A stretch of DNA of 64,000 nt from assembly GCF_900258045.1 (NCBI RefSeq), contig NZ_OGVD01000001.1:229001-293000 (forward strand). The letters are read 5' to 3'. Position 1 is the stretch's first letter. The number at the start of each line of letters is the position of its first letter. Below, piece by piece: positions 2,100-41,276 of the stretch. The notes beneath the pieces are model-generated. The model was not told the DNA's origin. It worked only from the letters and a program-made list of their open reading frames with translations, and did no database searches. A program made the translations under genes and the position numbers. Source of the stretch: Sphingorhabdus sp. EL138. GTDB lineage: Bacteria; Pseudomonadota; Alphaproteobacteria; Sphingomonadales; Sphingomonadaceae.

Positions 2100-2317
2100 T
2101 TTTTTGCTCCCTATTTGCGCCAGCTTAAGTGCAAGCTTGGTTCCCTGCAAATGGTCATTCCATTTTCATCGAGCTGGAACGCAGCCGCAAAAAAGCAGTT
2201 GTGGCGGGCGATGGTACTGCGAAATTTACATCTTTTCGTCGCTTAGTCGATTGCCAGCAACGCTCCGACTTTGCATAGAGTGACCGGGGCAGTTCAAATT
2301 TACGGGAGCATTTGGAT

Positions 2318-3121
2318 TTGAAAAACGACGATACTTTACTCACACGGCGGCAGATCATGGTCATCGCCACTCTTGCTGGCGGTATTAGCGCAACCGCGCC
2401 CTTGCACGCTCAGTTCAATCTGAAAAAAGGCCTGGGAGCGGCCGGCAAAGTTGCCAAAGCCGGCTCTTATAATGATGAGGAAATGGCGGTCTATTTTGAC
2501 CAGATGGCGGCCGATATGGATAGCCGTAATCCGGTTGCGAAGGCAAATGACCCATATGGCAAACGCATAGCCAATTTGTCGAAAGGTCTGAAAAATCATG
2601 ATGGGCTTGATCTTGATATAAAAGCCTATCTGGTCCGCGATGTGAACGCCTTTGCCATGGCCAATGGTACAATCCGCGTGTTTGCAGGGCTGATGGATGC
2701 ATTTACCGATGACGAGATCCGCTATGTCATTGGCCATGAGATCGGCCATGTCAAAGAAGGCCACACCAAGAAACGTATGCAGGGCGCATTGCAAAAAGAA
2801 GCGGCTTTCGGTGTTGCTGATGCAGCAGGCGGCAAGGTCGGCAAAATTGCCAATTCCAAGCTCGGCAAGCTGTTCGGAGATGTAATCAGTTCACAGCACT
2901 CGCAAAAGCATGAGAAAGAGGCTGATGATTACGCCATGGCCTTCATGAAGCAGAAAAAATATGATCCGATGGCCTGCGTGACCGCGCTCGACAAGCTTTC
3001 CGGTATGGGCGGCGGAGGCGGCGGTCTGCCCTGGTTGCAAACCCATCCAAGCCCGGAAGCCCGGTCCAAACGGATGCGCAAGCAACTCGCTCTTGCCATG
3101 CCGGATATGCAGCTCGGCTGA
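2318..3121 (+). CDS. Exported M48-family zinc metalloprotease
   Basis: About 267 residues. The zinc-binding HExxH is HEIGH inside VIGHEIGHVKEGH, and the third ligand is the Glu of EKEADDYAMAFM, both typical of M48 (Ste24/BepA/LoiP-like) peptidases. The N-terminus has a twin-arginine-like TRRQIMV followed by a hydrophobic stretch ending APLHAQ, so export is likely, perhaps by Tat. No ATG exists upstream of this signal; TTG codons at 2312 and 2318 are available, and the GGGAG at 2304-2308 favours 2318. The first ATG, at 2357, would remove the arginines. Probably a periplasmic protease in outer-membrane quality control. A Gly-rich loop precedes the C-terminal THPSPEARSKRM motif common in the family. 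Confidence 0.85.
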   Translation: MKNDDTLLTRRQIMVIATLAGGISATAPLHAQFNLKKGLGAAGKVAKAGSYNDEEMAVYFDQMAADMDSRNPVAKANDPYGKRIANLSKGLKNHDGLDLDIKAYLVRDVNAFAMANGTIRVFAGLMDAFTDDEIRYVIGHEIGHVKEGHTKKRMQGALQKEAAFGVADAAGGKVGKIANSKLGKLFGDVISSQHSQKHEKEADDYAMAFMKQKKYDPMACVTALDKLSGMGGGGGGLPWLQTHPSPEARSKRMRKQLALAMPDMQLG

Positions 3122-3129
3122 CGTTTTAA

Positions 3130-3176
3130 CTGACTGGATTATGTAACACCATATCATGCGTTCATAATCCAGTCAG
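3130..3176. repeat. 14-bp perfect inverted repeat (hairpin) between two genes
   Basis: CTGACTGGATTATG (3130-3143) and its exact reverse complement CATAATCCAGTCAG (3163-3176) are separated by 19 bases. The stem begins nine bases after the metalloprotease stop and ends about 50 bases before the next start. No T-run follows on either strand, so it is not a textbook intrinsic terminator. It could be an RNA stem that protects the 3' end, an attenuator or a protein-binding site. Confidence 0.7.
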
Positions 3177-3227
3177 CTTGCTCTTGGCACCTTCTGTCCC
3201 GGGTCGAACATGTGGGAAGAGGGTGAC

Positions 3228-4994
3228 ATGCGACGTTTTTCAAATATTTCCAAAACCTTATGTGGCTTTGCAGCACTTGGCCTGATCGGCACGCCGACCA
3301 CGGCACCGCTTGAAGCCCAGTCCAGGCAGGGCAAACGCCCTGATCTTGTGCAATTACCGCCGTCCCATCCCGTCAACTGCAGCATTTTTGGGTATCAGGA
3401 CCGTGAGCGCATATCGGTAAGAGTACCAAGGCGCGGGACAAAAGGTGTTTCGCCTCCGCCTCCCCCGCCTGTCGTCGCATCTTCGCCTGTCAGCAGATCT
3501 ATTTCCGGCGCTCCTGCAAAGAGTGTGAACCGCAGAGCTGCAGTTATCCGGCCATCCGGGCCGTACCCGTACCCCTATCCGCGTCCACCGCAAACACAGG
3601 ATCGCGAAAAATATGCCGGTGAAGCCGTAGCGAGCATAAAGCGGGTCGCCGATGAACCGGTATCCACTTTTGCCGTGGATGTTGACACCGGCAGTTATTC
3701 CAATGTCCGCCGTTTCCTGAACGACGGGAGAATGCCGCCGGAGGCCGCAGTGCGAACAGAGGAATTGATCAACTATTTCCGCTATGACTATCCTGCGCCG
3801 TCCAGCCGGGAAACCCCCTTCAGCGTGTCTACCGATCTTTCGACCACACCATGGAATGATTCCAGCCGCCTGCTGCGGATCGGCCTGCGCGGCTATGATG
3901 TGGATAGCAGCGAACGGCCTCGCGCCAATCTGGTTTTCCTGGTTGATGTATCCGGCTCGATGAATAGCAAAGACAAATTGCCATTGGTCAAATCAACACT
4001 GACCGCGCTTGCCGGCGAACTGCGAGACGATGACCGCGTATCCATTGTTGTCTATTCCGGCACGGTCGGTTTGCTGCTGGCGCCGACCTCGAACAAGGAT
4101 CATGTCAAAGAAGCGGTGGACTGCCTTTATGCCAGAGGATCAACGGCCGGTGGTGACGCGCTCAAACTCGCCTATTCCACAGCCCGCAAAAACTTTCTGA
4201 AGGACGGTATCAACCGCATCATCATGGCGACCGATGGTGATTTCAATGTCGGCACCTCCAATACCGACGAATTGAAAAAAATTGTTGCGAAAGAACGGGA
4301 GTCCGGCGTCAACTTGACGATGCTTGGTTATGGCACCGGTAATATCCGGGATGAGCTAATGGAAGGCATAGCCAATGTCGGCAATGGCAATTACGCCTAT
4401 ATAGACAGCGCGATGGAAGCCCAAAAAGTACTTGGCGAAGAACTCAGTTCCACTCTGTTCACTATCGCCAAGGACGTAAAAATACAGATCGAATTCAACC
4501 CCTTTCACGTGAAGGAATATCGCCTGATCGGCTATGAAAACCGGATTCTCGCGGAAGAAGATTTTGACAATGACAAAATTGATGCGGGCGACATTGGCGC
4601 CGGTCATCAGGTCACCGCTCTTTATGAAGTCATGCCGGCTCGATCATCTGGCTGGCTGCCAAAGCGACGTTATGCTGGCAATCGCGCCATCCAGCCACAG
4701 CAGGATCTTGACGGAGAAATGGCGCAGATAAAATTGCGCTATAAATTGCCTGGTGGAACAAAGTCCCGTCTCATCCAGCAACAAATTCCCGCAGATGGAT
4801 TGCAAACCGCATCCGCGCCGAGCGGGGATATGGCCTTTGCCGTGGCAGTAGCTGCTTTCGGTCAAAAGCTGCGCGGCGACAAATATCTTGGTGATTACGA
4901 GTTCCGGAACATTCAGCAGTTATCTGGCAACGGTGGTAACTTCTGGCGTCAGGAATTCCGCAAACTGAATGATTTAGCCCGCAGTCAGAGCTGA
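3228..4994 (+). CDS. VWA domain protein with DUF3520-like C-terminus (YfbK type), exported
   Basis: About 588 residues from the ATG at 3228, chosen because AAGAGGGTG sits just before it (an ATG at 3210 lacks a site). A signal peptide (MRRFSNISKTLCGFAALGLI, cleavage near PLEAQ) is followed by a Pro-rich linker. Next come the YfbK-type domain (STFAVDVDTGSYSNVRRFL) and a von Willebrand A domain whose MIDAS metal motif DVSGS is intact in VFLVDVSGSMNSKDKL. The C-terminal region (VKIQIEFNPFHVKEYRLIGYENR onward) resembles DUF3520. Such proteins are periplasmic or lipid-anchored and thought to scaffold protein complexes through the MIDAS metal; the function is not settled. It follows the metalloprotease gene on the same strand. 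Confidence 0.85.
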   Translation: MRRFSNISKTLCGFAALGLIGTPTTAPLEAQSRQGKRPDLVQLPPSHPVNCSIFGYQDRERISVRVPRRGTKGVSPPPPPPVVASSPVSRSISGAPAKSVNRRAAVIRPSGPYPYPYPRPPQTQDREKYAGEAVASIKRVADEPVSTFAVDVDTGSYSNVRRFLNDGRMPPEAAVRTEELINYFRYDYPAPSSRETPFSVSTDLSTTPWNDSSRLLRIGLRGYDVDSSERPRANLVFLVDVSGSMNSKDKLPLVKSTLTALAGELRDDDRVSIVVYSGTVGLLLAPTSNKDHVKEAVDCLYARGSTAGGDALKLAYSTARKNFLKDGINRIIMATDGDFNVGTSNTDELKKIVAKERESGVNLTMLGYGTGNIRDELMEGIANVGNGNYAYIDSAMEAQKVLGEELSSTLFTIAKDVKIQIEFNPFHVKEYRLIGYENRILAEEDFDNDKIDAGDIGAGHQVTALYEVMPARSSGWLPKRRYAGNRAIQPQQDLDGEMAQIKLRYKLPGGTKSRLIQQQIPADGLQTASAPSGDMAFAVAVAAFGQKLRGDKYLGDYEFRNIQQLSGNGGNFWRQEFRKLNDLARSQS

Positions 4995-5201
4995 TGATGA
5001 TTCGAACACCGCTGTGCTGTGGCACCAAGGCAGCAGACCATTAACCATCTTTGCTAAGCAATTGTCTCATATGGGGACAAATTCAGCCCGTCTCGTCGGA
5101 TATTTGGCATTTGCGCCCCACAGCGAAACTAGACTTGCCCCCAATTATCCTCCATTTTAGCTGATTAGTAACATGACATGCATTGAGTGAGGGGTTCCGT
5201 G

Positions 5202-5966
5202 ATGGAAGTTGGGGGTAAGATATTAACGGGTGCCGTTGCCACAGCATTACTGGCAGTCGTCGGGCACTATGCCACTAGTGATGGATATATCTCCGGTCTT
5301 GAAAAGGCCGCTCAAACAGAAATAACTGCGCAGGGGATGGAGGGTGTCGAGGTCGCATTTGGCCGCGATCCTTTGTCGCGCAAAGCCGTGCTGGATGGAG
5401 ATGTTTCCGACGATATGAAACAGAAAGCACTTAACGCCGTTGCTGCCATCCCCGGCGTATCTGACGCTGTCTGGGCCGGTAGCGATCTGGTCGGTGGAAC
5501 GGACGGCGGTGATGGATCTGAAACCAGCGGTGGCGGCGCAAATGCCGATCCAGCCATAACAAAATGCCAGACTGCGGTGGATCGGGCGATGGACGGAAAG
5601 AAACTCAGTTTCCGATCAGGAAGTGCCTATATCTCTCCCGCCTCAAACCAGATACTCGATGACGTAGCTGCGGCGCTGGAACCGTGTTCCGGTCTCGCGA
5701 TAGCTGTTGGTGGTCATACCGACGACAATGGCAATGCCGAAGTGAACAAAATCCTGTCACAGGAACGCGCCGACCGGGTTCGAGCGGGTCTGATCGAGCG
5801 CGGGATCGCTGAAAATATGGTTACGGCAACCGGCTTTGGGGCAGAACAACCGCTGGCGACCGAAACAGGTCCAGAAGCAGATGCACGAAACCGACGGATT
5901 GAATTCAAAGTACAGGCGGCAAATAAAAAAGCGACAAATGATGCGAATTCGCAACAGGGGGAATGA
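5202..5966 (+). CDS. BON-like plus OmpA-C domain membrane protein
   Basis: 254 residues from the ATG at 5202; GAGGGG seven bases upstream supports it over a GTG at 5187. The N-terminus (GGKILTGAVATALLAVVGHY) is a single membrane anchor or uncleaved signal. Residues about 30-100 look like a BON domain: a beta strand, then ALNAVAAIPGVSDAVW. After a Gly/Asp-rich linker, an OmpA-C peptidoglycan-binding domain follows, with GGHTDDNGNAEVN, LSQERADRVRAGL and ARNRRIEFKV. BON plus OmpA-C is the architecture of mycobacterial OmpATb/ArfA. The stop is three bases from a 33-codon membrane peptide gene, and a membrane-anchored helix-hairpin-helix protein follows. Confidence 0.85.
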   Translation: MEVGGKILTGAVATALLAVVGHYATSDGYISGLEKAAQTEITAQGMEGVEVAFGRDPLSRKAVLDGDVSDDMKQKALNAVAAIPGVSDAVWAGSDLVGGTDGGDGSETSGGGANADPAITKCQTAVDRAMDGKKLSFRSGSAYISPASNQILDDVAAALEPCSGLAIAVGGHTDDNGNAEVNKILSQERADRVRAGLIERGIAENMVTATGFGAEQPLATETGPEADARNRRIEFKVQAANKKATNDANSQQGE

Positions 5967-5969
5967 ACC

Positions 5970-6071
5970 ATGCCACTATTAATCGAAAATCTGTTGCTCC
6001 TGCTGGTGACTTTTGCAATTGGCCTCGGGATTGGATGGCTCATCTGGGGTCGCAATCGCGACGAGATTTAA
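5970..6071 (+). CDS. 33-residue single-pass membrane peptide
   Basis: A short gene that length cut-offs usually drop. It starts three bases after the BON-OmpA stop with an AGGGGGAAT ribosome site overlapping that gene's end. The translation is a short polar start (MPLLIEN), one hydrophobic span (LLLLLVTFAIGLGIGWLIWG) with a GxGxG-like packing face, and a basic-acidic tail (RNRDEI). Its coupling to the upstream gene and clean ribosome site argue that it is real. It probably sits in the inner membrane and partners the flanking membrane proteins. No family name can be given. Confidence 0.65.
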   Translation: MPLLIENLLLLLVTFAIGLGIGWLIWGRNRDEI

Positions 6072-6157
6072 TTGCAGTTTGGAATGGGACTGGCTTGCAG
6101 CGCAAATATATAGCCGCGCGGCCACCATATTTGGTTTGAATATAGGGGTTTGATATA

Positions 6158-6757
6158 ATGATATCGCTGATTTCTGAAAATTGGCTGTTTTTCCTGGTCG
6201 CTTTGCTGATCGGCGTAGCCACTGCATTTTGGGCTTGGGCCGTATCCGGACGCGAAAGTGCGGACGATCATTTTGACGCCGATGACGGTTTGCTGGAAAA
6301 AGCAGGCGATGCCGTGATTTCAGCGCCTGAACCCGTTGTACCTGCCCCTGCACCAAAGCCCGTTCCGGCACCGAAACCCGCCGCGGCACCGGTAGCCACA
6401 CCGGCGGCCAAGACCGTCAAACCAGCCCCCGCACCGCGTCCTCGCAAGCGTCCGGTGGCCACCGAAACACCGCCGCCGCCACCACCTGGCAAGCCGAAAA
6501 TCGCGCCAGCAAAGGGCGACCCCGACAATTTACGACTGATCAAAGGCGTCGGACCGAAGCTGAATAGTCTGCTCAACAATCTGGGCATTACCCGCTTTGA
6601 CCAGATTGCCGAATGGAAAGAGGCAGAGATCCAAGAGGTCGACCAGTATCTGGAGAGCTTCAGCGGCCGAATTACCCGCGATTCATGGATTGATCAGGCC
6701 AAATATCTTGCGAAAGACGATATTGCCGGCTTTGAAAAGAAATACGGCAAGCTTTAG
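6158..6757 (+). CDS. Membrane-anchored protein with C-terminal helix-hairpin-helix domain
   Basis: 199 residues. Residues about 8-26 (WLFFLVALLIGVATAFWAWA) form one membrane span, followed by an acidic patch and a long Pro/Ala/Lys linker (about 50-115, PAPKPVPAPKPAA-like). The C-terminal domain (NLRLIKGVGPKLNSLLNNLG, then ITRFDQIAEWKEAEI) matches the helix-hairpin-helix (H3TH-like) fold fused to NuoE-like and ribosomal proteins in many alphaproteobacteria. The IKGVGPK turn is the usual hairpin. It is third in line after the BON-OmpA gene and the 33-residue peptide, 86 bases downstream. Whether the domain binds nucleic acid or serves as a protein contact is unknown. Confidence 0.75.
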   Translation: MISLISENWLFFLVALLIGVATAFWAWAVSGRESADDHFDADDGLLEKAGDAVISAPEPVVPAPAPKPVPAPKPAAAPVATPAAKTVKPAPAPRPRKRPVATETPPPPPPGKPKIAPAKGDPDNLRLIKGVGPKLNSLLNNLGITRFDQIAEWKEAEIQEVDQYLESFSGRITRDSWIDQAKYLAKDDIAGFEKKYGKL

Positions 6758-6766
6758 CAGTTTGCA

Positions 6767-8845
6767 CTAACCGTTACTGACCTGATATTTTTTCAAACCG
6801 AAAAATTCCTGAACATCGCGACTGGAAATTGGCTCACTGATCAAGAATCCCTGTATGTGGTTACATCCCTTCTCTTTCAGAAAAGCCAACTGGCTTGAAT
6901 TCTCGACACCCTCCGCAACAGTTTGAAAATTTAGTGCAGCACCCAAACCGGTAACAGCACTGATTATCGGTGCTGCTCCCTCCAATTCACCGATCTGCGC
7001 AACAAAACTTCTGTCGATCTTCACGGTATCGAATGGAATAGCGCACAGATAACTCAAGGATGAAAATCCGGTTCCGAAATCATCCAGCGCAATTCTCACC
7101 CCGATGCTGCTCAATTTCTCCAGCATCGCCTTTGTCTGGTCAATATTCTCAATGAAAACGGACTCGGTGATTTCCAGTTCCAAACGGTTGGGGTCCATTT
7201 GGTACTTCGCAATGGTGCGCATTATTTTGGAGATGAAATCCGGATCAATCAACTGTGTAGCCGAGACATTCACAGAGACATTAATTTCATCCGGCCAGAG
7301 TGCTGCATGGCGGCAAGCCTCTGCAACGACCCAATCACCGAGTGACCCGATAGTCCCGGTTTCTTCCGCAATAGGTATGAGTTCGGCAGGAGAAACTTCA
7401 CCAAGATCAGGATGGTCCCACCGCAACAACGCTTCAAACGATTTGATCTGATTACTTTCGATATTCAATTGTGGCTGGAACAGGAGATACATCTCACCAT
7501 TGGCCAAAGCCGATTTCAGATCGCCTGCCAGTTTGGTGTACCGCTTATGTCTCAACCCGATGTCGTGGTTGAACATCACCGGGACTTTGGGATGAGTCTT
7601 TTTCGAGCAGTAAAGCGCAATATCGGCTTCTTTGGACAATATCTCTTCCGACTTTTTGCCGGCTTCGCCAGCTGTCCAGCCGATACTTGCAGAGCACTTT
7701 AGTTGCCGTGAACCAATTGTAAAAGCACGGGTAAAACAGGATTGGATTTCTTGTACTGTTTTATCGCAATTTAGGGTGTCACCCTCAACGCGCTTGACGA
7801 CAGCAAATTCATCACCACCAATCCTCGCCACAAGCTCGGTGCCGGCAACGGCTGATAGCCGATCGGCAACCTGTATCAACAGTTCGTCGCCAGCCGGATG
7901 GCCAAGATCATCGTTCACCCGTTTGAAATCATCAAGATCAATAAGCATCAATACAATGCCACCATCCCCATCCTTCGAGCGATCCTTTTGATTTGTCATC
8001 CGGTATATTGTTTCGACAAACATTTTTCGGTTTGCGATCCCCGTCAAATCATCAAGCTGGGCCGCCAAACGCAATTTTTCTTCCAGTTGAAACTTGTCGG
8101 TCACATCCTGACAAACACCGATAATCGATGTCAGTTTGCCATTTTCAAACTGGGGCTCCCCGATATTGCGAACCCTCTTCTGTTGATTATTGGCCGTCAC
8201 AAAGCCAGTTTCCAAATCAAATGCCGTCTGACTTTCTATAGATTGCCTGATTGTCTCGGACAGGCGTGATTTTTCATGGCCCGGATAAAATTCCAGCACT
8301 TTGCCCAAAGACGGGACCGGGCCTTCCGGAAGGTCATGAATTGCAAAAATCTGCTCAGACCAGAAAAGCTGATAGCTATGTACGTCGAGCCGCCATGTAC
8401 CAATTTGAGCAATCTGTTCTGCTTTTCGGAACAAGCGATTGGCATTGTCTATTTCGATCTGCATCGCCTTTTGTCTGCTCACATCGAAACACAAGCCGAC
8501 AAAACCCAATCGGGTATCATCTTCGTCTCCATAGGGGCTACTAAGAGCGGAAATCCAGACTGATTCACCATTTGGTTTCTGGAACCGGAACTCCAGATTA
8601 AACACCTGATCATTTTGAACCGCTCTGTGCCATTCCGCCAACACATGTTCCCTGTCGTCGGGATGAAGGGCATCTGCCCAACCATATTCATGAGCTTCTG
8701 AAGCGCTCAGCCCGGAAAGCGCCATCCAAGACTGATTGACATATGTACAACTGCCCGAACAATCTGTCAGAAAAATGCCGGCCGGAGAGATATCTGCCAG
8801 GCTCTTGAAACGCAGTCCGTCCCTTTGAATGTCAATATTGTCCAT
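6767..8845 (-). CDS. PAS-PAS-GGDEF-EAL cyclic-di-GMP enzyme
   Basis: 692 residues, no membrane span. Two PAS domains (about 10-125 and 140-250, the second ending IGVCQDVTD) lead into a diguanylate cyclase domain with intact RIGGDEFAVV and an EAL phosphodiesterase domain. All key EAL residues are visible: SFEALLRW, NVSATQL, LELEITES, DDFGTGFSS, KIDRSF, AEGVEN and QGF. Both catalytic motifs are therefore intact and the protein could synthesise or degrade c-di-GMP. No RxxD inhibitory site is present five residues before GGDEF, so product inhibition is unlikely. The PAS domains suggest control by a small ligand, redox state or partner. Its stop is nine bases from the converging helix-hairpin-helix gene. 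Confidence 0.9.
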   Translation of the reverse strand: MDNIDIQRDGLRFKSLADISPAGIFLTDCSGSCTYVNQSWMALSGLSASEAHEYGWADALHPDDREHVLAEWHRAVQNDQVFNLEFRFQKPNGESVWISALSSPYGDEDDTRLGFVGLCFDVSRQKAMQIEIDNANRLFRKAEQIAQIGTWRLDVHSYQLFWSEQIFAIHDLPEGPVPSLGKVLEFYPGHEKSRLSETIRQSIESQTAFDLETGFVTANNQQKRVRNIGEPQFENGKLTSIIGVCQDVTDKFQLEEKLRLAAQLDDLTGIANRKMFVETIYRMTNQKDRSKDGDGGIVLMLIDLDDFKRVNDDLGHPAGDELLIQVADRLSAVAGTELVARIGGDEFAVVKRVEGDTLNCDKTVQEIQSCFTRAFTIGSRQLKCSASIGWTAGEAGKKSEEILSKEADIALYCSKKTHPKVPVMFNHDIGLRHKRYTKLAGDLKSALANGEMYLLFQPQLNIESNQIKSFEALLRWDHPDLGEVSPAELIPIAEETGTIGSLGDWVVAEACRHAALWPDEINVSVNVSATQLIDPDFISKIMRTIAKYQMDPNRLELEITESVFIENIDQTKAMLEKLSSIGVRIALDDFGTGFSSLSYLCAIPFDTVKIDRSFVAQIGELEGAAPIISAVTGLGAALNFQTVAEGVENSSQLAFLKEKGCNHIQGFLISEPISSRDVQEFFGLKKYQVSNG

Positions 8846-32400: not shown

Positions 32401-34260
32401 ATGAGCGAAACAGCCCCACTTATTGCCCTCGCTGGTAATCCCAATGCGGGCAAAAGCGCCTTGTTCAATGCGCTTACCGGAGCACGACAGAAAATTGCAA
32501 ACTATCCTGGCGTTACTGTGGAACGCAAATCCGGTCATTTTCAGCTAGCCAATGGTCGCCCGGTCGAACTTGTGGATTTACCGGGCAGCTACAGTCTCGA
32601 CCCAACCAGCCCGGATGAAGCGGTCACACGCAGCGTGATCATGGGAGAACAGAAAGGCGAGCGACAGCCAGATGCAATTGTTATTGTACTGGATGCTGCC
32701 AATCTCGACAATCATTTGCGCTTCGCACTGGAAGTAATCGCACTTGGCAGCCCTGTTCTGATTGCGCTTAACATGATGGATCTTGCCGAGCGCGATGGCT
32801 TGACGCTGGATCCGGCCAAGCTGGAAGCAGAGTTGGGCGTACCGGTTATTCCAACTGTTGCCGTTCGCAATCGCGGTCTTGAGCTCTTGTCCGCCTCTAT
32901 TGAAACACGTCTTTCCGAGAAAAACGAGCAACCGACTACCATTGTCCCCAAAGAACGCGGCCACGGCCTGCGCAAGCAGGCAAAGGAAATTGCCAATTTG
33001 GCGGTTATTGCTGAAACCGCAGGTCGCCGGTGGTCAGAACGCGCGGATGCTGTGTTCCTGCATCCTTTTGCCGGACCGATCATCCTCCTTGCGATTATGT
33101 TTGTGATGTTTCAGGCGGTCTTTGCGTGGTCTGAAGCGCCAATAGGCTGGATCGAAGGCGCAGGTGAATGGGCCGCAGCTGCGGTAGAGGCCAATTTGGG
33201 TGAAGGCTTCTTGCGCGATTTTTTAATTGAGGGCGCAATTGGCGGTGTCGGATCAGTTGTTGTCTTCCTCCCGCAAATTCTGATCTTGTTTCTGTTCATC
33301 CTCTTGCTCGAAGCTAGTGGTTATATGACCCGCGCGGCCTTTATCATGGATAGGTTGATGGCCAGTGTTGGTCTGTCCGGACGCAGTTTCATTCCATTGC
33401 TGTCTTCATTCGCCTGCGCCATTCCCGGCATCATGGCGACGCGCAGTATAGCGGACCCGAAAGACAGGCTGACCACGATATTAGTCGCGCCGCTTATGAC
33501 CTGCGCAGCGCGTCTGCCGGTATATGCAATCATCATTGGCGCCTTCATTCCTGCCCGCGACGTAGGCGGAGGTATCGGCCTTCAAGGCCTGGTTCTGTTC
33601 GGTCTTTATATCTTCGGCATTCTCGGCGCGATGATTGTTGCACTGGTCTTGCGCAGCACCGTCACCAAAGGCCCGAATAGCGGCTTCCTGATGGAAATGC
33701 CCAAATATCAGATGCCGCGTATTCGTGATATATTGCTGGGTCTCTGGCAACGGGCTTGGATATTTTTGCGCCGCGCCGGAACAATCATCTTCGTCGCTAC
33801 CGTAGTGCTTTGGCTCATGTTGACCTATCCCAAAGTGCCGGATGATAGCCCGGTAAGCCAAGTGGATTATTCTGCCGCTGGCCGAATAGCCAACGTCATC
33901 GAACCGGTGGTTGCGCCGATTGGTTTCAATCGCGATATGGCGCTGGCTTTGATCCCTGCCATGGCGGCCCGCGAGGTGGCGGTAGCGGCGCTGGCAACAA
34001 CCTATGCGATTGATGCACCGGATGAGGAAGCAGAAGCGAAATCATTAACCGAACGCCTCCAAAGCCGCTGGTCCTTGCCAACCGCCTTGGCGTTTCTGGC
34101 CTGGTTTGTTTTTGCACCCCAATGCATCTCTACCATTGCCGTGACACGCCGCGAAACCAATGGCTGGAAATGGCCAATGTTTATGTTGGGGTATCTTTTC
34201 GCGCTGGCTTATGTGGCGGCCGGGATTACATATTGGAGTGCTGTCGCCCTCGGTCTATAG
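32401..34260 (+). CDS. feoB: Ferrous iron transporter B
   Basis: 619 residues. The G domain has G1 [13 protein letters not shown]3 DLPGSYSL and G4 NMMD. The membrane part includes the two Gate regions ([19 protein letters not shown]-like stretch and [14 protein letters not shown]) and about eight spans. It imports Fe2+ across the inner membrane, driven or gated by GTP. Slightly shorter than E. coli FeoB, usual for alphaproteobacteria. Shares the feoA promoter and its Fur-like box. Confidence 0.94.
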
Positions 34261-34310
34261 AGCCTCCAGAGAATCGAAAAACATCACATATATTCCAAGG
34301 GGAAATGCAA

Positions 34311-34838
34311 ATGGCTGGCGGCATCAATAAAGTAATTATCGTAGGAAATCTGGGTGCCAACCCTGAAGTGCGCACATTCAACAATGGCGGCAAAGTCTGC
34401 AATCTGCGCATCGCGACATCCGAAAGCTGGAAAGACCGAAACACCGGTGAGCGCAAGGAAAAGACCGAGTGGCATAGCGTTGCTATCTTCTCCGAAGGCC
34501 TGGCTGGCGTCGCGGAAAAGTATCTTCGCAAGGGCAGCAAAGTTTATATCGAGGGAAAACTACAGACCCGCAAATGGCAAGACCAGTCCGGCAATGACCG
34601 TTATTCAACCGAGATTGTCTTGCAGGGTTTTGATGGCAAATTGGAAATGCTCGATTCCCGTCAAGGTGGCGGTATGGGCGGCCAGGGCGGCGGCAATGAC
34701 GGCTGGAGCGGCGGTGGTTCCGGTGGCGGCTCTGGCGGTGGTTCCAATGACGGGTGGGGCAATACCGGTGGCGGATCTTCCGGTGGTCAAGGCGGCGGCG
34801 CATTTGACAGCGACCTCGATGACGACGTACCTTTCTAG
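34311..34838 (+). CDS. ssb: Single-stranded DNA-binding protein
   Basis: 175 residues from the ATG at 34311, seven bases after AAGGGGA; an ATG at 34305 sits too close to that site. The OB fold ([55 protein letters not shown]) is followed by a Gly/Ser-rich flexible linker (about 120-165). The acidic tip is DDDVPF, the docking site for partner proteins. The open frame extends upstream into feoB, but that part is not SSB-like. Confidence 0.95.
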
Positions 34839-34852
34839 AAGCTAGAGCGTAG

Positions 34853-34875
34853 CTTACACCCGCGAGGGTGTGAAG
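34853..34875 (+). terminator. Short hairpin after ssb, possible terminator
   Basis: ACACCC-GCGA-GGGTGT forms a 6-bp stem closed by a GNRA tetraloop, 17 bases after the ssb stop. There is no T-run, so it may be a weak terminator or an mRNA-end protector. Confidence 0.35.
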
Positions 34876-34952
34876 TTGCTTGACAGTATCGGCCCATATA
34901 ATCGGGGACAGGCCGGGCTATTGCCCTGACACTCGACGAGGTTTACTGATCC

Positions 34953-35663
34953 ATGATGAACAATTGCGAACAATGTGTTGTCAAAAACAAGGCCATTTGT
35001 TCGGCATTGGACCCGGACGAACTGATCGCAATCAATCGGCTCTCCCGCAAAGTCTCCATCAAGGCGGGGCAGGCTTTGATATGGGAGGGTGACGATAGCC
35101 TGATCGTGGCCAATGTTGTGGAAGGGGCGTTTAAACTGACCTCGTCTCTGGAAGACGGCCGCGAGCAAATTATCGGCTTGCTCTACCCGTCCGATTTTGT
35201 CGGGCGCCCGTTCGGTGACAGGAATGAATATACGGTAACCGCTCTTGCAGATTCGAAAGTCTGTGTTTTCTCGCGCTCCGATTTCGACCAGTTTGTTCGT
35301 GAACATCCTGACCTCGAACATAAATTACTGCAGCGCACGTTAGTTGAACTCGACCGCGTTCGACGGTCTATGTTGATGTTGGGACGGAAAACAGCTCCAG
35401 AGCGCGTGGCGTCTTTCCTGCTGGAAATGTCGGATCGGCTGGCGGATGCCAGTTGCAGCGTCGTCGGCGGCAGTCTTCAACAATTCGCGCTGCCTTTCGG
35501 CCGTCAGCAGGTAGCGGATATATTGGGCCTGACCATTGAAACGGTGAGCCGTCAAATGACCCAATTGAAAAAGAATGAAGTGATCGCACTCCCCGATCAC
35601 CGCAATGTCCAGATACTGGATGCGAACCGCTTGCATGATATTGCCGATGCTGGATCAAGCTAG
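34953..35663 (+). CDS. FNR-type oxygen-sensing regulator (Crp/Fnr family)
   Basis: 236 residues. The N-terminal cysteines C5-x2-C8-x7-C16 plus a fourth at about 104 (DSKVCVFS) match the [4Fe-4S] ligands of FnrL, so it should be active only without oxygen. A cyclic-nucleotide-binding fold and dimer helix lead to the HTH GRQQVADILGLTIETVSRQM, whose ETVSR recognises TTGAT half-sites. The first two codons are both ATG. The gene sits directly before the cbb3 oxidase operon, which carries a perfect FNR box. Confidence 0.9.
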   Translation: MMNNCEQCVVKNKAICSALDPDELIAINRLSRKVSIKAGQALIWEGDDSLIVANVVEGAFKLTSSLEDGREQIIGLLYPSDFVGRPFGDRNEYTVTALADSKVCVFSRSDFDQFVREHPDLEHKLLQRTLVELDRVRRSMLMLGRKTAPERVASFLLEMSDRLADASCSVVGGSLQQFALPFGRQQVADILGLTIETVSRQMTQLKKNEVIALPDHRNVQILDANRLHDIADAGSS

Positions 35664-35744
35664 GTCGGGCAGATCGATAAATGAAGCTGCATCCTTGCGG
35701 GAACGTTGTTTCAACAAAAACGATTTGGCAAAGAGTTTGTTGCG

Positions 35745-35758
35745 TTGATCTAGATCAA
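35745..35758. promoter_or_regulatory. Perfect FNR box upstream of ccoN
   Basis: TTGATCTAGATCAA is a full palindrome and an exact match to the FNR consensus TTGAT-N4-ATCAA. It lies 78 bases before the ccoN ATG and 82 bases after the end of the FNR-type gene. The regulator's ETVSR recognition helix fits this site. It predicts induction of the oxidase at low oxygen. Confidence 0.88.
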
Positions 35759-35836
35759 TGTGAATGACTGTCTGGCCTGCCATGCCGCTTCCTGTTGAAG
35801 ACGATTTTTTGAATCGTCCATACAGGGAAGGACATC

Positions 35837-37507
35837 ATGGATACGCTCTTATTAAAGGCTGGCGGCTGGCTGGCTATCGTGTTTTTTGCGTTTATTGCAA
35901 TGGTTCTGGCGGCAGATGCCGGATTTGCCGTGCATATGGCAATTATCGCTTTGGCTGCCGGGATCACTCTTTGGGTGACCATCAACAAGGCAGACTATGC
36001 TGCCATTGGACGCGGTATATTAAAAGCCCCCGCCGATCCCGGTATTTATGATGACGATCCGATCCGCTGGGGCGTGATCGCGACTATTTTCTGGGGTATT
36101 GCCGGTTTCTTGGTTGGGCTTATCATTGCCCTGCAACTTGCGTTTCCGGTGCTTAATCTGAATTTTGAATATACCACATTTGGTCGTTTGCGGCCCCTCC
36201 ATACATCTGCCGTTATTTTCGCTTTTGGAGGCAATGCGCTGATCGCGACAAGCTATTATGTCGTACAGCGTACATGCCGGGCGAGGTTGGCCTTCCCTGG
36301 CCTCGCCCGTTTTGTTTTCTGGGGTTACCAGCTGTTCATCGTGCTGGCGGCCACAGGTTATCTGATGGGAGTTACCCAGTCCAAGGAATATGCCGAACCC
36401 GAATGGTATGTCGATCTTTGGTTGACCATCGTCTGGTTGTGTTATGCAGCAGTCTTCATTGGTACAATCGTACGTCGGTCCGAGCCGCATATCTATGTCG
36501 CCAACTGGTTCTATCTGTCATTCATCCTGACCATTGCCATGCTGCATGTCGTGAACGGCTTGTCCATGCCGGTCAGCCTGCTGGGTTCGAAAAGCTATGC
36601 CGCTTTTGCTGGCGTGCAGGATGCGCTGACCCAATGGTGGTATGGCCATAACGCGGTTGGGTTCTTCCTGACGGCAGGCTTCTTGGCAATGATGTACTAT
36701 TTCGTGCCGAAACAGGCAGAGAGACCGGTTTATAGCTACCGACTGTCGATCATCCACTTCTGGTCCTTGATCTTCCTCTATATCTGGGCAGGACCACATC
36801 ATCTTCATTACACGGCGCTGCCCGACTGGGCACAGACGCTCGGCATGGTCTTCTCGGTCGTGCTGTGGATGCCGAGTTGGGGTGGAATGATCAACGGCCT
36901 GATGACCCTGAACGGGGCATGGGACAAAATCCGTACTGATCCCATCATTCGGATGATGGTCCTTGCACTCGCCTTCTATGGCATGAGCACGTTTGAAGGT
37001 CCGATGATGTCAATCAAAGCCGTGAACAGCCTGTCGCATTACACCGACTGGACAATTGGCCATGTGCATAGCGGTGCACTGGGCTGGAACGGCATGATCA
37101 CCTTCGCATGCCTTTACTATCTCGTCCCGCGCCTGTGGGGCAAAGAGCGGCTTTATTCGCTGCGCATGGTGAACTGGCACTTCTGGCTCGCGACGCTGGG
37201 TATCGTTCTCTACGCCGCGTCAATGTGGGTAGCCGGTATCATGCAGGGTCTGATGTGGCGCGAATATGGTGATGATGGCTATCTGGTTTACGCTTTCTCC
37301 GAAGTCGTATCCGCGATGCTGCCCATGTATCTGATCCGTGCGGCGGGCGGGCTGCTCTATCTCGCTGGTGCCATCGTGCTGGTCTACAATGTCTGGATGA
37401 CGATTGCAGGCAAGCAGCGCGAAGAAAAACCCATGACCGAAACGCCTTATGACGAGGCCGCGGATAAGCCGATTGTAGGAAAACCTGCAATTGAGCCAGC
37501 AGAATAA
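35837..37507 (+). CDS. ccoN: cbb3-type cytochrome c oxidase subunit I
   Basis: 556 residues, about 12-13 membrane spans. The heme-copper ligands are present: low-spin heme His in [18 protein letters not shown], CuB histidines in [15 protein letters not shown], and heme ligands in [30 protein letters not shown] precedes the ATG. Catalytic core of the high-affinity proton-pumping oxidase used at low oxygen. A short cytosolic tail ([20 protein letters not shown]) follows the last span. First gene of a tight cluster. Confidence 0.96.
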
Positions 37508-37520
37508 GGGAGGCGAGAAC

Positions 37521-38255
37521 ATGTCCGGTTTTGCTAAACATCACAAGAAACTCGAACGCAACGTCACCCTGCTGGGTCTGGCCGCCTTTGTCACTGTAGC
37601 GATTGGCGGGATCGTCGAGATCGCACCGCTCTTCTGGATCGATAACACGATTGAGAAAGTCGAAGGCGTACGGCCCTATACCCCGCTCGAACTGGCAGGG
37701 CGCAACATCTACATACGAGAAGGCTGCTACAGTTGTCACAGCCAGATGGTAAGACCTTTCCGCGATGAGGTGGAGCGCTATGGTCACTACAGTCTGGCGG
37801 CGGAAAGCATGTATGACCATCCTTTCCAGTGGGGTTCCAAACGAACCGGCCCCGATCTGGCCAGGGTTGGTGGACGATATTCGGATGAATGGCATGTCCA
37901 GCATCTGATTGATCCCCGCTCGGTGGTGCCGGAATCGATCATGCCGCCTTACGCGTTTCTGGCTGAGAAAGATCTGAAAGCTGGTGATATGGTCAAGCAT
38001 CTGACGGCTCAGCGTCGTGTCGGCGTTCCCTATACTGACGAAGCGATTGCGGCGGCCAACGATGATTTGATGGCGCAGGCCGATCCAACAGCATCAACTA
38101 CCGATTTGGAGAAACGCTACCCTAAAGCGCAAGTTCGCGATTTTGACGGCGACCCTGACCGGTTGACAGAGATGGATGCGCTCGTGGCCTATTTGCAGAT
38201 GATCGGCACGCTTGTCGATTTTGAAGCAGGCGAGGCACAGGAGCAACCGCGATGA
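37521..38255 (+). CDS. ccoO: cbb3-type cytochrome c oxidase subunit II (monoheme)
   Basis: 244 residues from the ATG at 37521, with AGGGAGGCGAG just before it. One N-terminal span ([20 protein letters not shown]) and one heme-c site CYSCH inside [20 protein letters not shown]. The distal Met is likely in [11 protein letters not shown]. CcoO passes electrons from CcoP to CcoN. It starts 13 bases after ccoN and overlaps ccoQ by four bases. Confidence 0.95.
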
Positions 38256-38413
38256 GTTATGAGGCACTCAGGCATTTTGCGGATAGTTGGGGGTTGCTGT
38301 TTCTGGGCATTATTTTCCTGACCATGATCGGCTGGACCTTCCGGCCTGGATCGGGACGAAAACACGAAGAAGCGGCGCATATGATCTTTGAAGAGGATCA
38401 CGAAGATGGTTGA
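38252..38413 (+). CDS. ccoQ: cbb3 oxidase small subunit CcoQ
   Basis: 53 residues, below usual length cut-offs. Its ATG overlaps the ccoO stop (ATGA), and its end overlaps ccoP by eight bases. A single membrane span ([18 protein letters not shown]) is followed by a basic then acidic tail ([14 protein letters not shown], then FEEDHEDG), the standard CcoQ layout. CcoQ stabilises the core complex or relays signals from it. Position and sequence together make this secure. Confidence 0.88.
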
Positions 38414-39359
38414 TAAACAGAGAATTGACGAAGCAACGGGCACCCAGACGGTTGGCCATGAATGGGATGGTATTGAGGAACTCGATACCCCCATGCCGCG
38501 CTGGTGGCTGTGGACTCTATATGCGACAATTATCTGGGGTCTCGTCTATGTTGTGCTTTATCCGGCATGGCCAATGGTCAACAGCGCAACCGAAGGCGTA
38601 CTCGGCTGGTCCAGTCGCGGCGACTATCAAAAGGCATTGGCAGCTCGTGAAGCCGAGTTGGAACCGATCCGGCAAGCTCTGGTAAAAACAGACATCCATG
38701 ACTTGCCCAACAATCCAGAACTGCTCAATGAAGCAGTACAGGGCGGCCGTTCCGCTTTTAAAGTCCACTGTGTGCAATGCCATGGCTCAGGCGCTGCGGG
38801 TTCCAAGGGCTATCCCAATCTGAATGACGACGAATGGCTTTGGGGCGGGGATATGGAAGCGATTGAATATACGCTGGTCCACGGCATCCGTAATCCCGAC
38901 CATGATGAAACGCGTTTTTCCCAGATGCCCGCTTTTGGCCGGGACGGGATATTGCAATCGAATGAAATTCAGGATCTGGTTTCCTATGTCCGGGTGCTCA
39001 GTGATCGCGAACAACAAAGCGCATCGTCAAACCGGGGTGCGGCACTGTTTGAGATCAATTGCACGGTATGTCATGGCAATGATGCCAAAGGCGACCGAAC
39101 GCAGGGCGCACCCAACCTGACCGACGCCATCAATCTTTATGGTCTGGATCGTGCCTCGCTGACTGACACGATCACTAATAGTCGTTATGGTGTAATGCCA
39201 CGCTGGGGCCATCGGTTGGATGCAGCGACTATCAGGATGCTGACGGCCTACGTACATTCACTGGGTGGCGGCGAAGCTGCGCCGGTATCAGAGGATACTG
39301 CGACTGAGCAAGCGGCAATAGCCACTGAGGCGGAGACTCCGGTAGATGAGCAATCCTAA
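38406..39359 (+). CDS. ccoP: cbb3-type cytochrome c oxidase subunit III (diheme)
   Basis: 317 residues from the ATG at 38406, with GAGGA eight bases upstream. An N-terminal signature (HEWDGIEELDTPMPRWWLWT) and one span precede two heme-c domains: CVQCH at about 124 and CTVCH at about 217. It accepts electrons from soluble cytochrome c. The C-terminal tail is acidic (EDTATEQAAIATEAETPVDE), unlike many homologues, and its last codons overlap ccoG by 14 bases. Confidence 0.95.
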   Translation: MVDKQRIDEATGTQTVGHEWDGIEELDTPMPRWWLWTLYATIIWGLVYVVLYPAWPMVNSATEGVLGWSSRGDYQKALAAREAELEPIRQALVKTDIHDLPNNPELLNEAVQGGRSAFKVHCVQCHGSGAAGSKGYPNLNDDEWLWGGDMEAIEYTLVHGIRNPDHDETRFSQMPAFGRDGILQSNEIQDLVSYVRVLSDREQQSASSNRGAALFEINCTVCHGNDAKGDRTQGAPNLTDAINLYGLDRASLTDTITNSRYGVMPRWGHRLDAATIRMLTAYVHSLGGGEAAPVSEDTATEQAAIATEAETPVDEQS

Positions 39360-40803
39360 CGAAATTCTTGATCCGCAACTGCAGCTTTATGAAAAGCGCA
39401 AGGGCGTTTATCCCAAGGCAGTAGATGGTACGTTCCGACGGCTGAAATGGGCGATCATGGCGGTGACGTTGGCGATCTACTACATCACCCCTTGGATTCG
39501 TTGGGATCGCGGTCCTTACGCGCCGGATCAGGCGGTATTGGTCGATTTGGCGAACCGCCGCTTTTTCATGTTCGGGATCGAAATCTGGCCGCATGAATTT
39601 TACTATGTGGCTGGCATGCTGGTCATGGCGGGCATTGGCCTGTTTCTGGTCACTTCTGCAGTGGGCCGGGCGTGGTGTGGCTATTCATGCCCGCAGACGG
39701 TCTGGACAGATCTGTTCCAGCATATCGAGCGTGCGATTGACGGCGACCGCAATGCTCAATTTCGTTTGCAGGACGCCCCCTGGGGACCAAAGAAAATATT
39801 CAAACGGTTGAGCAAGTGGACAATATGGTTGCTGGTTGCATTGGCCACTGGCGGTGCGTGGATATTCTATTTTGCCGACGCCCCGACCCTGGCAGGGGAC
39901 TTCTTTTCGGGCGAAGCGGCCTTTGTCGCTTATGCCACCGTCGGCGTTTTGACAGCGACGACATTTATTTTTGGCGGTTTCATGCGTGAACAAGTGTGCG
40001 TCTACATGTGTCCCTGGCCGCGGATTCAAGCCGCAATGATGGACGAAAAGTCACTGACGGTGACTTACAAGGACTGGCGCGGCGAGCCTCGTGGCAGTGT
40101 CAAAAAAGCCGAAGCACAGCCCGGCAGCTTTGGTGACTGTATCGACTGCAATCAATGCGTTGCAGTCTGCCCGACTGGAATTGATATACGCGAAGGACCG
40201 CAAATTGGCTGCATAACGTGTGCTCTGTGCATTGATGCCTGTGACAAGGTAATGGATCAAGTGGGTCGTCCACGCGGATTGATTGACTATGTCACAGAAG
40301 AAGATGCCGAGTTGGAAAAGGCCGGCCAATCCCATACCCCGGTCCTGAAAACACTCTTTCGTCCGCGTACTCTCCTCTATTTCTCTGTCTGGGGTGCAAT
40401 TGGTCTCGCAATGCTCTTTGCCGTCGGCAACCGCACGCGTATTGATATCAGTGCCAATCATGATCGCAATCCGCTCTATGTACAGCTCGCTGACGGCGCT
40501 GTCCGCAACGCCTATACCGCCAATTTGCGAAATATGGAGAACCGGCCACGCACGATGGAAATTTCCATGTCAGGCCTCGGACAGGCTGTGCTATGGTCAG
40601 GTGAAGGATCGCGGGAGACAGCTGGCCAGACCGTAACGGTCGAGGTCCCGGCTGACAGCGTCGGCAGGGTTAGGCTATTTGTTGCGGCACCTGGTGTCGG
40701 GCCTGAACGGGAAGAATTTGTACTGACCGTCGAGGCCGCAGATGACCGGACAGCGCAGGATAGCCACAACGTCTTTTTTGAACGCCCGGAGAGTGCTGAA
40801 TGA
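39346..40803 (+). CDS. ccoG: Oxidase assembly protein CcoG (FixG/RdxA), polyferredoxin
   Basis: 485 residues. Membrane spans flank two cysteine clusters of 4Fe-4S type: CIDCNQCVAVCPTGIDIR and CITCALCIDACDK. There is also a membrane-embedded Cys pair (RAWCGYSCPQTVWTD) and QVCVYMCPWPRIQ. The C-terminal domain is Ig-like. CcoG is a cupric reductase that supplies Cu(I) for cbb3 assembly. It overlaps ccoP (14 bases) and ccoH (four bases). Confidence 0.95.
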   Translation: MSNPNEILDPQLQLYEKRKGVYPKAVDGTFRRLKWAIMAVTLAIYYITPWIRWDRGPYAPDQAVLVDLANRRFFMFGIEIWPHEFYYVAGMLVMAGIGLFLVTSAVGRAWCGYSCPQTVWTDLFQHIERAIDGDRNAQFRLQDAPWGPKKIFKRLSKWTIWLLVALATGGAWIFYFADAPTLAGDFFSGEAAFVAYATVGVLTATTFIFGGFMREQVCVYMCPWPRIQAAMMDEKSLTVTYKDWRGEPRGSVKKAEAQPGSFGDCIDCNQCVAVCPTGIDIREGPQIGCITCALCIDACDKVMDQVGRPRGLIDYVTEEDAELEKAGQSHTPVLKTLFRPRTLLYFSVWGAIGLAMLFAVGNRTRIDISANHDRNPLYVQLADGAVRNAYTANLRNMENRPRTMEISMSGLGQAVLWSGEGSRETAGQTVTVEVPADSVGRVRLFVAAPGVGPEREEFVLTVEAADDRTAQDSHNVFFERPESAE

Positions 40804-41276
40804 CCCCCGAACCCATCAAACCTAAGAATTTTACTGGCTATCATGCCACGGCCATGATCGTTGCCTTTTTCGTAGTGGTTGTCGCGGTGAACATGGTCAT
40901 GGCGCGCTTCGCTGTCTCGACTTTTAGCGGCACTTTGGTCGACAACACTTATGTTGCCAGCCAGAAGTACAACACCTGGCTAGAGGAAGCCCGCAAACAA
41001 CAGGCTCATGGTTGGACTAGCTCGAAGGTCATCCGTCTTCAGGAAAAAGTAGCCATGACTGTCCTGAAGGCCGACAATACACAGCTAGAGGATGCACAGA
41101 TCATAGCGGTTGCGGAACATCCGGTTGGGCGAACCGACCCGATCACCCTGCATTTTAAGCAAGACCAGACCGGAACATATATCAGCCGTGGCGTCTTGCC
41201 GGAAGGACGCTGGAAATTGCGGATCACAATCCTGCATCGCGGCAATAAAATGGCGCTGGCACAGGAAATATTTTGA
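40800..41276 (+). CDS. ccoH: FixH/CcoH family oxidase assembly protein
   Basis: 158 residues. One N-terminal span (HATAMIVAFFVVVVAVNMVM) and the FixH domain (TFSGTLVDNTYVASQKYNTW, a frequent family stretch). Needed for stable assembly of cbb3 oxidase. ATGA overlap with ccoG, and the ccoI TTG start overlaps its stop, so all three are translationally coupled. Confidence 0.88.
   Translation: MTPEPIKPKNFTGYHATAMIVAFFVVVVAVNMVMARFAVSTFSGTLVDNTYVASQKYNTWLEEARKQQAHGWTSSKVIRLQEKVAMTVLKADNTQLEDAQIIAVAEHPVGRTDPITLHFKQDQTGTYISRGVLPEGRWKLRITILHRGNKMALAQEIF

What the first reader, a model, noticed from the sequence alone, without database searches (positions are those of the whole stretch)
5202..6757. 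BON-OmpA, 33-residue peptide and membrane-anchored protein: an arfABC-like set in a sphingomonad
A BON plus OmpA-C protein is followed by a tiny membrane peptide gene and a single-span membrane protein. This is the same order and size pattern as mycobacterial ompATb-Rv0900-Rv0901 (arfABC), implicated in acid adaptation and ammonia release. The BON-OmpA match is in the sequence; that the two followers are functional analogues is inference from layout. I do not claim homology of the third protein, which ends in a helix-hairpin-helix domain.
Basis: partly seen in the sequence, partly recalled or inferred. Interest (0 to 1): 0.72.

Follow-up and report, generated by a model that had tools for sequence, protein, structure and literature searches.

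The report
Three-gene envelope module resembling arfABC
Three adjacent genes, one only 33 codons long, encode membrane proteins built like an acid-adaptation gene set of mycobacteria but with a different tail on the third, and in related bacteria the first of them is almost always found directly before the third.

Summary
P1 (5202-5966: membrane anchor, BON-like region, OmpA domain), P2 (5970-6071: 33 residues) and P3 (6158-6757: membrane anchor, linker, helix-hairpin-helix tail) form a conserved module. Of 62 printed long P1 matches in 149 genomes of the family, 61 have P3 just downstream; the exception sits at a contig end. The micropeptide lies between P1 and P3 in 67 of 71 loci and is fused to the BON region in two others. 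P1 shares with mycobacterial ArfA a cysteine pair that 0 of 77 other OmpA proteins have. The anchors of P2 and P3 resemble those of ArfB and ArfC beyond shuffled and natural controls, but genome-wide searches for this are not significant. P3 lacks ArfC's sunset tail; its own tail is one that NCBIfam also places on ribosomal proteins L21 and S2, as it places sunset on others. Likely function (inferred): a wall-tethered inner-membrane complex showing a nucleic-acid- or ribosome-type domain to the cytoplasm. Acid or ammonia function is untested; the curated Arf models are not met.

The parts
5202..5966 (+). P1: membrane anchor, BON-like region, OmpA peptidoglycan-binding-type domain (254 aa)
5223..5276 (+). 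P1 N-terminal hydrophobic segment (about residues 8-25), probable uncleaved anchor
   Evidence: sequence; invariant G10 and nearly invariant A18 in A1, 40 sequences
5289..5501 (+). P1 BON-like region (about residues 30-100)
   Evidence: hhalign with the N-terminus of another family's OmpA proteins, 0 of 200 shuffles; 2 of 40 relatives hit Pfam BON at E<=0.01; low-confidence strand-helix-strand model
5610..5894 (+). P1 OmpA domain (residues 137-231)
   Evidence: PF00691 E 3.1e-20; best PDB profile match 2lbt, Rv0899 C domain, E 3.1e-25
5565..5567 (+). Cys122 codon, first of the conserved cysteine pair
   Evidence: invariant in 40 of 40 in A1; pair in 66 of 67 OmpA-bearing P1; same place in ArfA
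5685..5687 (+). Cys162 codon, second of the conserved cysteine pair
   Evidence: invariant in 40 of 40 in A1; pair in 66 of 67 OmpA-bearing P1; same place in ArfA
5970..6071 (+). P2: 33-residue single-span membrane micropeptide, GxxxGW motif then WGR
   Evidence: 67 of 71 loci
6158..6757 (+). P3: single-span membrane protein with C-terminal helix-hairpin-helix tail (199 aa)
6179..6238 (+). P3 membrane anchor, similar to P2 and to ArfB/ArfC anchors
6524..6754 (+). P3 helix-hairpin-helix tail (residues 123-199)

Best explanation
The three genes encode one inner-membrane complex of the arfABC type. P1 is held in the inner membrane by its N-terminal helix and reaches into the periplasm with a BON-like region and an OmpA domain, probably braced by a disulfide, that grips peptidoglycan. 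The micropeptide P2 and the anchor of P3 are sister helices with a small-residue packing motif; they lie in the membrane with their C-termini in the cytoplasm, bundle with P1 and stabilise it. P3 presents, on a flexible linker, a helix-hairpin-helix domain to the cytoplasm, of the type that other bacteria also attach to ribosomal proteins and to NuoE. The complex thus ties cell wall, membrane and a cytoplasmic nucleic-acid- or ribosome-type binding domain together. Shown: gene linkage, OmpA domain and tail, cysteine pair, anchor similarity, gene fusion of BON region and micropeptide. Inferred: topology, disulfide, complex formation, peptidoglycan binding, the ligand of the tail. Unknown: any acid or ammonia role.
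For: P3 just downstream of 61 of 62 long P1 matches. Micropeptide at the same place in 67 of 71 loci. In loci L104 and L114 (two genomes of one genus, G053 and G129) the micropeptide is fused in frame to the BON region, OmpA domain gone. The trio stays whole while the upstream gene changes (30, 16 and 5 of 71 loci fall in three different upstream clusters). In other families of the class, 10 of 13 OmpA proteins with the cysteine pair have a motif-bearing anchor protein directly downstream, against 1 of 15 without the pair (that one is an OmpA fragment cut by its contig end) and 0 of 77 OmpA loci from elsewhere by the same rule (3 of the 77 have under 300 bases downstream). P2, P3, ArfB and ArfC anchors score 15.2-43.2 with each other; the anchors of P1 and ArfA score 7.5-14.1 with all. 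A protein with membrane helices, linker and this same tail is a seen subunit of a photosynthetic complex.
Against: No physical interaction was tested. No P1 was found near the P3-like gene in 61 of 132 loci (at least one of these, L055, starts at a contig end), so P3 has a life of its own. Genome-wide searches with the anchor profiles do not find ArfB significantly, and other proteins score better. The weakest anchor score, P2 with ArfC (15.2), is barely above the natural controls. P1's BON-like part does not align with ArfA's BON part directly (65 of 200 shuffles score as high). No second copy of the tail was found in the window's genome, so docking on other tailed proteins cannot be the mechanism here. 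The P1 model is of low confidence (mean pLDDT 58).
Confidence: 0.55

Rival explanations
1. P2 is chiefly a regulator of P1 made from the same message: it controls P1 synthesis, stability or insertion, and P3 is an independent neighbour.
For: Rv0900, the 50-residue counterpart, is reported to regulate OmpATb post-transcriptionally (PMC3618439, introduction passage). P3-like genes stand without P1 in 61 of 132 fetched loci.
Against: P3 is next to 61 of 62 P1 matches, and the anchors of P2 and P3 are similar, which suggests a shared partner. In L104 and L114 P2 is a part of the BON protein itself.
Confidence: 0.2
2. The set is a true functional counterpart of arfABC that speeds ammonia release and growth in acid.
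For: Layout, OmpA domain with cysteine pair and anchors match arfABC. OmpATb is reported to be involved in rapid ammonia secretion (review PMC3816664, passages).
Against: No nitrogen or acid gene was recognised by eye next to the module in the window. The curated Arf models do not hit. The cytoplasmic tail differs.
Confidence: 0.12
3. The likeness to arfABC is convergence: a common OmpA protein that happened to be followed by small membrane proteins in two phyla; short hydrophobic segments look alike by chance.
For: Anchors are short; genome-wide searches are not significant; BON parts do not align directly; ArfB against ArfC, the within-operon comparison, only just exceeds its shuffles (20.6 against a best of 19.7).
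Against: Cysteine pair 0 of 77 in other OmpA proteins; column shuffles reach the anchor score in 0 of 300 (A6 against ArfB), 1 of 300 (P2 against ArfB), 0 of 200 (P3 against ArfC), 0 of 200 (P3 against ArfB) and 1 of 200 (P2 against ArfC); natural membrane segments score 7.5-14.1.
Confidence: 0.13

Closest known systems
arfABC (ompATb-Rv0900-Rv0901) of mycobacteria; NCBIfam NF051434, NF051435, NF051433
   Same: Order, sizes, anchor-BON-OmpA first protein with the cysteine pair, small single-span second protein, single-span third protein with a C-terminal domain; similar anchors.
   Different: P1 has one BON-like region against a BON_like plus a BON hit in ArfA. P3 ends in a helix-hairpin-helix tail, not the sunset domain. 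No curated Arf model hits.
Rv0899-like protein family (Marassi 2011, seen only as a cited reference and a sentence in PMC3816664)
   Same: Rv0899-like proteins are reported outside mycobacteria, mainly in bacteria with nitrogen-fixation functions.
   Different: I could not read the paper (not held), so whether it covers these proteins or describes partner genes is unknown to me.
Protein-O of the Dinoroseobacter shibae photosynthetic core complex (PDB 8yy9 chain O, PMC12079452)
   Same: N-terminal membrane part, long flexible linker, same C-terminal tail (E 1.4e-35; passages).
   Different: Two membrane helices; its gene lies between those of NuoE and NuoF; no OmpA partner in the passages I saw.
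C-terminal tailed variants of NuoE, L21, S2 and PhaH (NCBIfam PRK12373, PRK12278, PRK12311, NF045508)
   Same: Same tail at the C-terminus.
   Different: Carrier proteins named as ribosomal, respiratory or phasin proteins instead of a small membrane anchor; P3 is far below each model's whole-protein cut-off, as expected for a shared tail only.

Membership tests
ArfA (NCBIfam NF051434) | hit to the curated N-terminal model | tested here: not met
   P1 residues 1-133: 0 families at E<=10; the mycobacterial protein of L186 hits at 1.2e-46
ArfA (NCBIfam NF051434) | anchor, then BON, then OmpA domain | tested here: inconclusive
   anchor and OmpA clear; BON part only through relatives and below Pfam cut-off
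ArfA (NCBIfam NF051434) | cysteine pair framing the first OmpA helices (a feature I noticed here, not one taken from the model) | tested here: met
   40 of 40 in A1; 66 of 67 OmpA-bearing P1 loci; 5 of 5 mycobacterial proteins by reading; 0 of 77 other OmpA loci
ArfB (NCBIfam NF051435) | hit to the curated model | tested here: not met
   P2: 0 families at E<=10; mycobacterial ArfB of L186 hits at 7.8e-19
ArfB (NCBIfam NF051435) | small single-span peptide directly after the OmpA gene, anchor similar | tested here: inconclusive
   place met in 67 of 71 loci; profile score reached by 1 of 300 shuffles; genome-wide anchor search finds ArfB at E 0.108 and 5.3 in 2 of 8 genomes only
ArfC (NCBIfam NF051433, sunset NF051437) | C-terminal sunset domain | tested here: not met
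   P3 hits no sunset or ArfC model among its 14 families at E<=1
ArfC (NCBIfam NF051433, sunset NF051437) | N-terminal anchor like ArfC | tested here: inconclusive
   0 of 200 shuffles reach the profile score; P3 N-terminus gives no hit to NF051455 at E<=10
arfABC operon | acid adaptation and ammonia release | not testable with these tools
   needs mutants
BON (PF04972) | score over the curated cut-off | tested here: not met
   no hit in P1 at E<=1; 2 of 40 relatives at E<=0.01, the one whose score was shown is below cut-off
OmpA (PF00691) | score over the curated cut-off | tested here: met
   72.8 bits against 27.2
helix-hairpin-helix tail of tailed NuoE, L21, S2, PhaH | alignment with the C-terminal extension of those models | tested here: met
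   PRK12373 256-397 of 400, PRK12278 117-215 of 216, PRK12311 260-331 of 334, NF045508 96-233 of 234

The most novel reading that the evidence does not exclude
The arf-type module is a general envelope tether whose third protein carries whatever tail domain the lineage also hangs on its ribosomal proteins: sunset in mycobacteria (NCBIfam lists it on L17, L4, S2 and L20), helix-hairpin-helix here (listed on L21 and S2). The module would bring ribosomes, their messages or nucleic acid to the inner membrane under a cell-wall anchor, and the acid phenotype in mycobacteria would be one outcome of that tethering.
Probability: 0.15. Interest if true: 0.85.

Novelty: new variant of a known kind. Interest (0 to 1): 0.6.

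Why it matters
What the mycobacterial arf operon does is unsettled: a review calls even the porin role of its first protein controversial (PMC3816664, passages). A conserved counterpart in other bacteria gives a place to study the design: an OmpA-type wall anchor, a 33-residue helper and a third subunit whose cytoplasmic tail differs between lineages. It also puts a micropeptide family with dozens of relatives on the map, and links two tail domains of obscure function to the same kind of membrane protein.

Tried and rejected
Chance micropeptide: rejected, 67 of 71 loci. Codon test against the one same-genus relative in the sample was uninformative (7 synonymous and 6 non-synonymous codons of 33).

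Docking on other tailed proteins in this genome: rejected, only one tail copy found at E<=1e-4. Plasmid-borne module: no match for a relative of P1 (L062) in the plasmid collection at E<=1e-20. Micropeptide outside the family: 11 of 287 other class genomes give weaker matches (E 3e-6 to 0.0098); those I looked at (L142-L146) are anchors of larger proteins next to OmpA genes. Direct alignment of P1's BON part with ArfA's BON part: not better than shuffles. Recovery of ArfB from mycobacterial genomes by anchor profiles: not significant. Structure of P1: low confidence; the fold search saw the OmpA domain, with Rv0899 entries at ranks 8, 12, 15 and 19. I left one structure job unused. Loci were not fetched for the best P3 places of G145, G099, G027, G031, G056, G005, G084, G114, G049, G085, G124, G012, G091, G072, G097, G003, nor for matches that one search did not print.

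Full report
WHAT IS THERE. Three + strand genes follow one another: P1 5202-5966, P2 5970-6071, P3 6158-6757. Three bases separate P1's stop codon from P2's start codon, and 86 bases separate P2 from P3. No terminator-like site was found on the + strand in 4900-7000. P1 carries an OmpA domain over the curated cut-off. P3's tail matches the C-terminal extensions of tailed NuoE, L21, PhaH and S2 in NCBIfam.

CONSERVATION IN THE FAMILY. 149 genomes were searched with P3 (147 of 149 have a match) and with P1 (148 of 149, mostly through the OmpA domain only). One search printed a capped list; 62 of its matches start within the first 30 residues of P1, in 59 genomes. Of these 62, 61 have a P3 match downstream on the same strand within 1.6 kb, and the remaining one, in G148, lies at a contig end. 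Four further, partial P1 matches are adjacent too. I fetched or received 138 loci of these genomes; six are second copies of the same place and were dropped. Of the 132 left, 71 have a P1-like gene before P3 and 61 show none in the fetched stretch; L055 among these 61 starts at a contig end. Among the 71, a hydropathy filter finds the micropeptide in 65 (a 66th candidate, in L113, I rejected), and reading the frames adds L068 and L093: 67 of 71. A second rule gives the same total: 58 with the motif G-x3-[GA]-[WFY] and 9 that depart from it (L018, L033, L034, L046, L059, L060, L063, L086, L137). Of the other four, L027 and L113 have none, and in L104 and L114 it is fused to the BON protein, which has lost its OmpA domain. 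L133 and L134 also match only the BON half of P1 but keep the micropeptide and P3. Of 67 P1 proteins that reach the end of the OmpA domain, 66 have the cysteine pair.

The gene upstream falls into three clusters. By my reading these are a VWA/YfbK protein (30 of 71, as in the window, where Pfam names it), a flippase-like membrane protein (16 of 71) and PurD (5 of 71); the other 20 of 71 are in none of them. In the 61 loci without P1, 30 have the PurD-type gene upstream, 9 the flippase-like and 4 the VWA type. So the trio is the unit that stays together, and P3-like genes also live alone.

THE WIDER CLASS. Of 289 class genomes, 58 have a P1-profile match at E<=1e-20. Of the 30 loci returned I left out the window's own and G014's and examined 28, L158-L185. 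13 proteins have the cysteine pair, and 10 of them have, within 250 bases downstream, a protein starting with a hydrophobic anchor with G-x3-[GA]-[WFY]; of 15 without the pair, one does, L172, an OmpA fragment cut by its contig end. Of the three with the pair but without the motif (L160, L162, L163), two are followed by another single-span protein. The partner proteins whose ends I saw carry a helix-hairpin-helix tail or a coiled-coil-like stretch. As a control, 77 OmpA loci from other bacteria that best match the OmpA domain of Rv0899 show the cysteine pair in 0 of 77 and the anchor in 0 of 77, by the rule and by the rule.

COMPARISON WITH arfABC. The single genome-contig scan kept 80 loci, three of them mycobacterial: L186 (M. 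ostraviense), L187 (Mycobacterium sp.) and L188 (M. palustre). Each has an ArfA, a 49-51-residue ArfB and an ArfC-like ORF. NCBIfam confirms the three names for L186. ArfA was found in 8 of 150 genomes of that order at E<=1e-25. P1 profile against ArfA plus three relatives: probability 99.9, E 7.5e-33. The best PDB match of the P1 profile is the Rv0899 C domain, closely followed by YiaD, so that rank alone decides nothing; the cysteine pair does more.

THE ANCHORS. A profile of 23 anchors against five ArfB sequences scores 25.6, and none of 300 column shuffles reaches it (best 16.5); micropeptides alone score 20.8, reached by 1 of 300. P3 anchor against ArfC: 0 of 200; P3 against ArfB: 0 of 200; P2 against ArfC: 1 of 200; P2 against P3: 0 of 200; ArfC against ArfB: 0 of 200, but only just (20.6 against 19.7). 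Among natural anchors, those of P1 and ArfA score 7.5-14.1 with every other set, while P2, P3, ArfB and ArfC score 15.2-43.2 with each other. Against 252 natural hydrophobic N-termini, the five ArfB sequences rank 1, 2, 3, 4 and 6, the five ArfC 7, 11, 14, 18 and 41; they are each one family, so the ranks are not independent. Against this: whole-genome searches of three mycobacteria with the micropeptide profile did not list ArfB, and of eight with the anchor profile listed it in two, at E 0.108 (second in its genome) and 5.3, while unrelated frames reached E 0.0147. A related anchor from another family (L142) touches the ArfB model at E 0.0015, below its cut-off. I read the anchors as probably related, not proven.

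THE TAIL PARALLEL. ArfC ends in the sunset domain, which NCBIfam also lists on L17, L4, S2 and L20. P3 ends in a tail that NCBIfam lists on L21, S2, NuoE and PhaH. Neither tail hits the other's models in these scans. A held-library search for 'sunset domain' found one paper, on librarianship, and the paper on protein-O calls the function of this tail obscure (PMC12079452, passages). Only one copy of the tail was found in the window's genome, so the tail's partner here is not another tail.

MECHANISM. The most likely picture is a bundle of three membrane helices with a wall-binding domain outside and a flexible tail inside. The fusion in L104 and L114 fits a P2 whose start faces the periplasm and whose end faces the cytoplasm. 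Rv0900 is reported to regulate OmpATb post-transcriptionally (PMC3618439, passage), which fits a P2 that stabilises P1. No data here bear on acid or ammonia.

LITERATURE. Seen as passages: PMC3618439, PMC3816664, PMC6151718, PMC12079452. PMC7806268 was opened for two terms and neither was in its main text. Not held: PMC3172613 and PMC3091969. Searches that might have shown this module in print; as far as their listings show, none describes it in this family.

Noticed in passing
L104 and L114 (genomes G053 and G129): BON region and micropeptide fused in one protein; OmpA domain absent; P3-like gene follows directly.
   Followed up: partly
L011, L020, L030 and others: P3-like genes without P1 or P2 in the fetched stretch, many next to a PurD-type gene (30 of 61 such loci); others, such as L007 and L026, after the VWA protein.
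   Followed up: partly
G217:C79:1170-1676 and G335:C8:388328-388861: Two helix-hairpin-helix tails in tandem close to an OmpA match.
   Followed up: no
window 2312-4994: M48 protease (LoiP-like, below the family cut-off) and a VWA/YfbK protein directly upstream of the trio; the VWA cluster is upstream in 30 of 71 trio loci.
   Followed up: partly
window 32401-43405: By reading only: FeoB-like, CRP/FNR-like, then what looks like a cbb3-type oxidase and copper-ATPase gene cluster.
   Followed up: no
L059 (genome G076): Trio with a P1 whose BON-like part is shortened or hard to recognise while the OmpA domain is kept.
   Followed up: no
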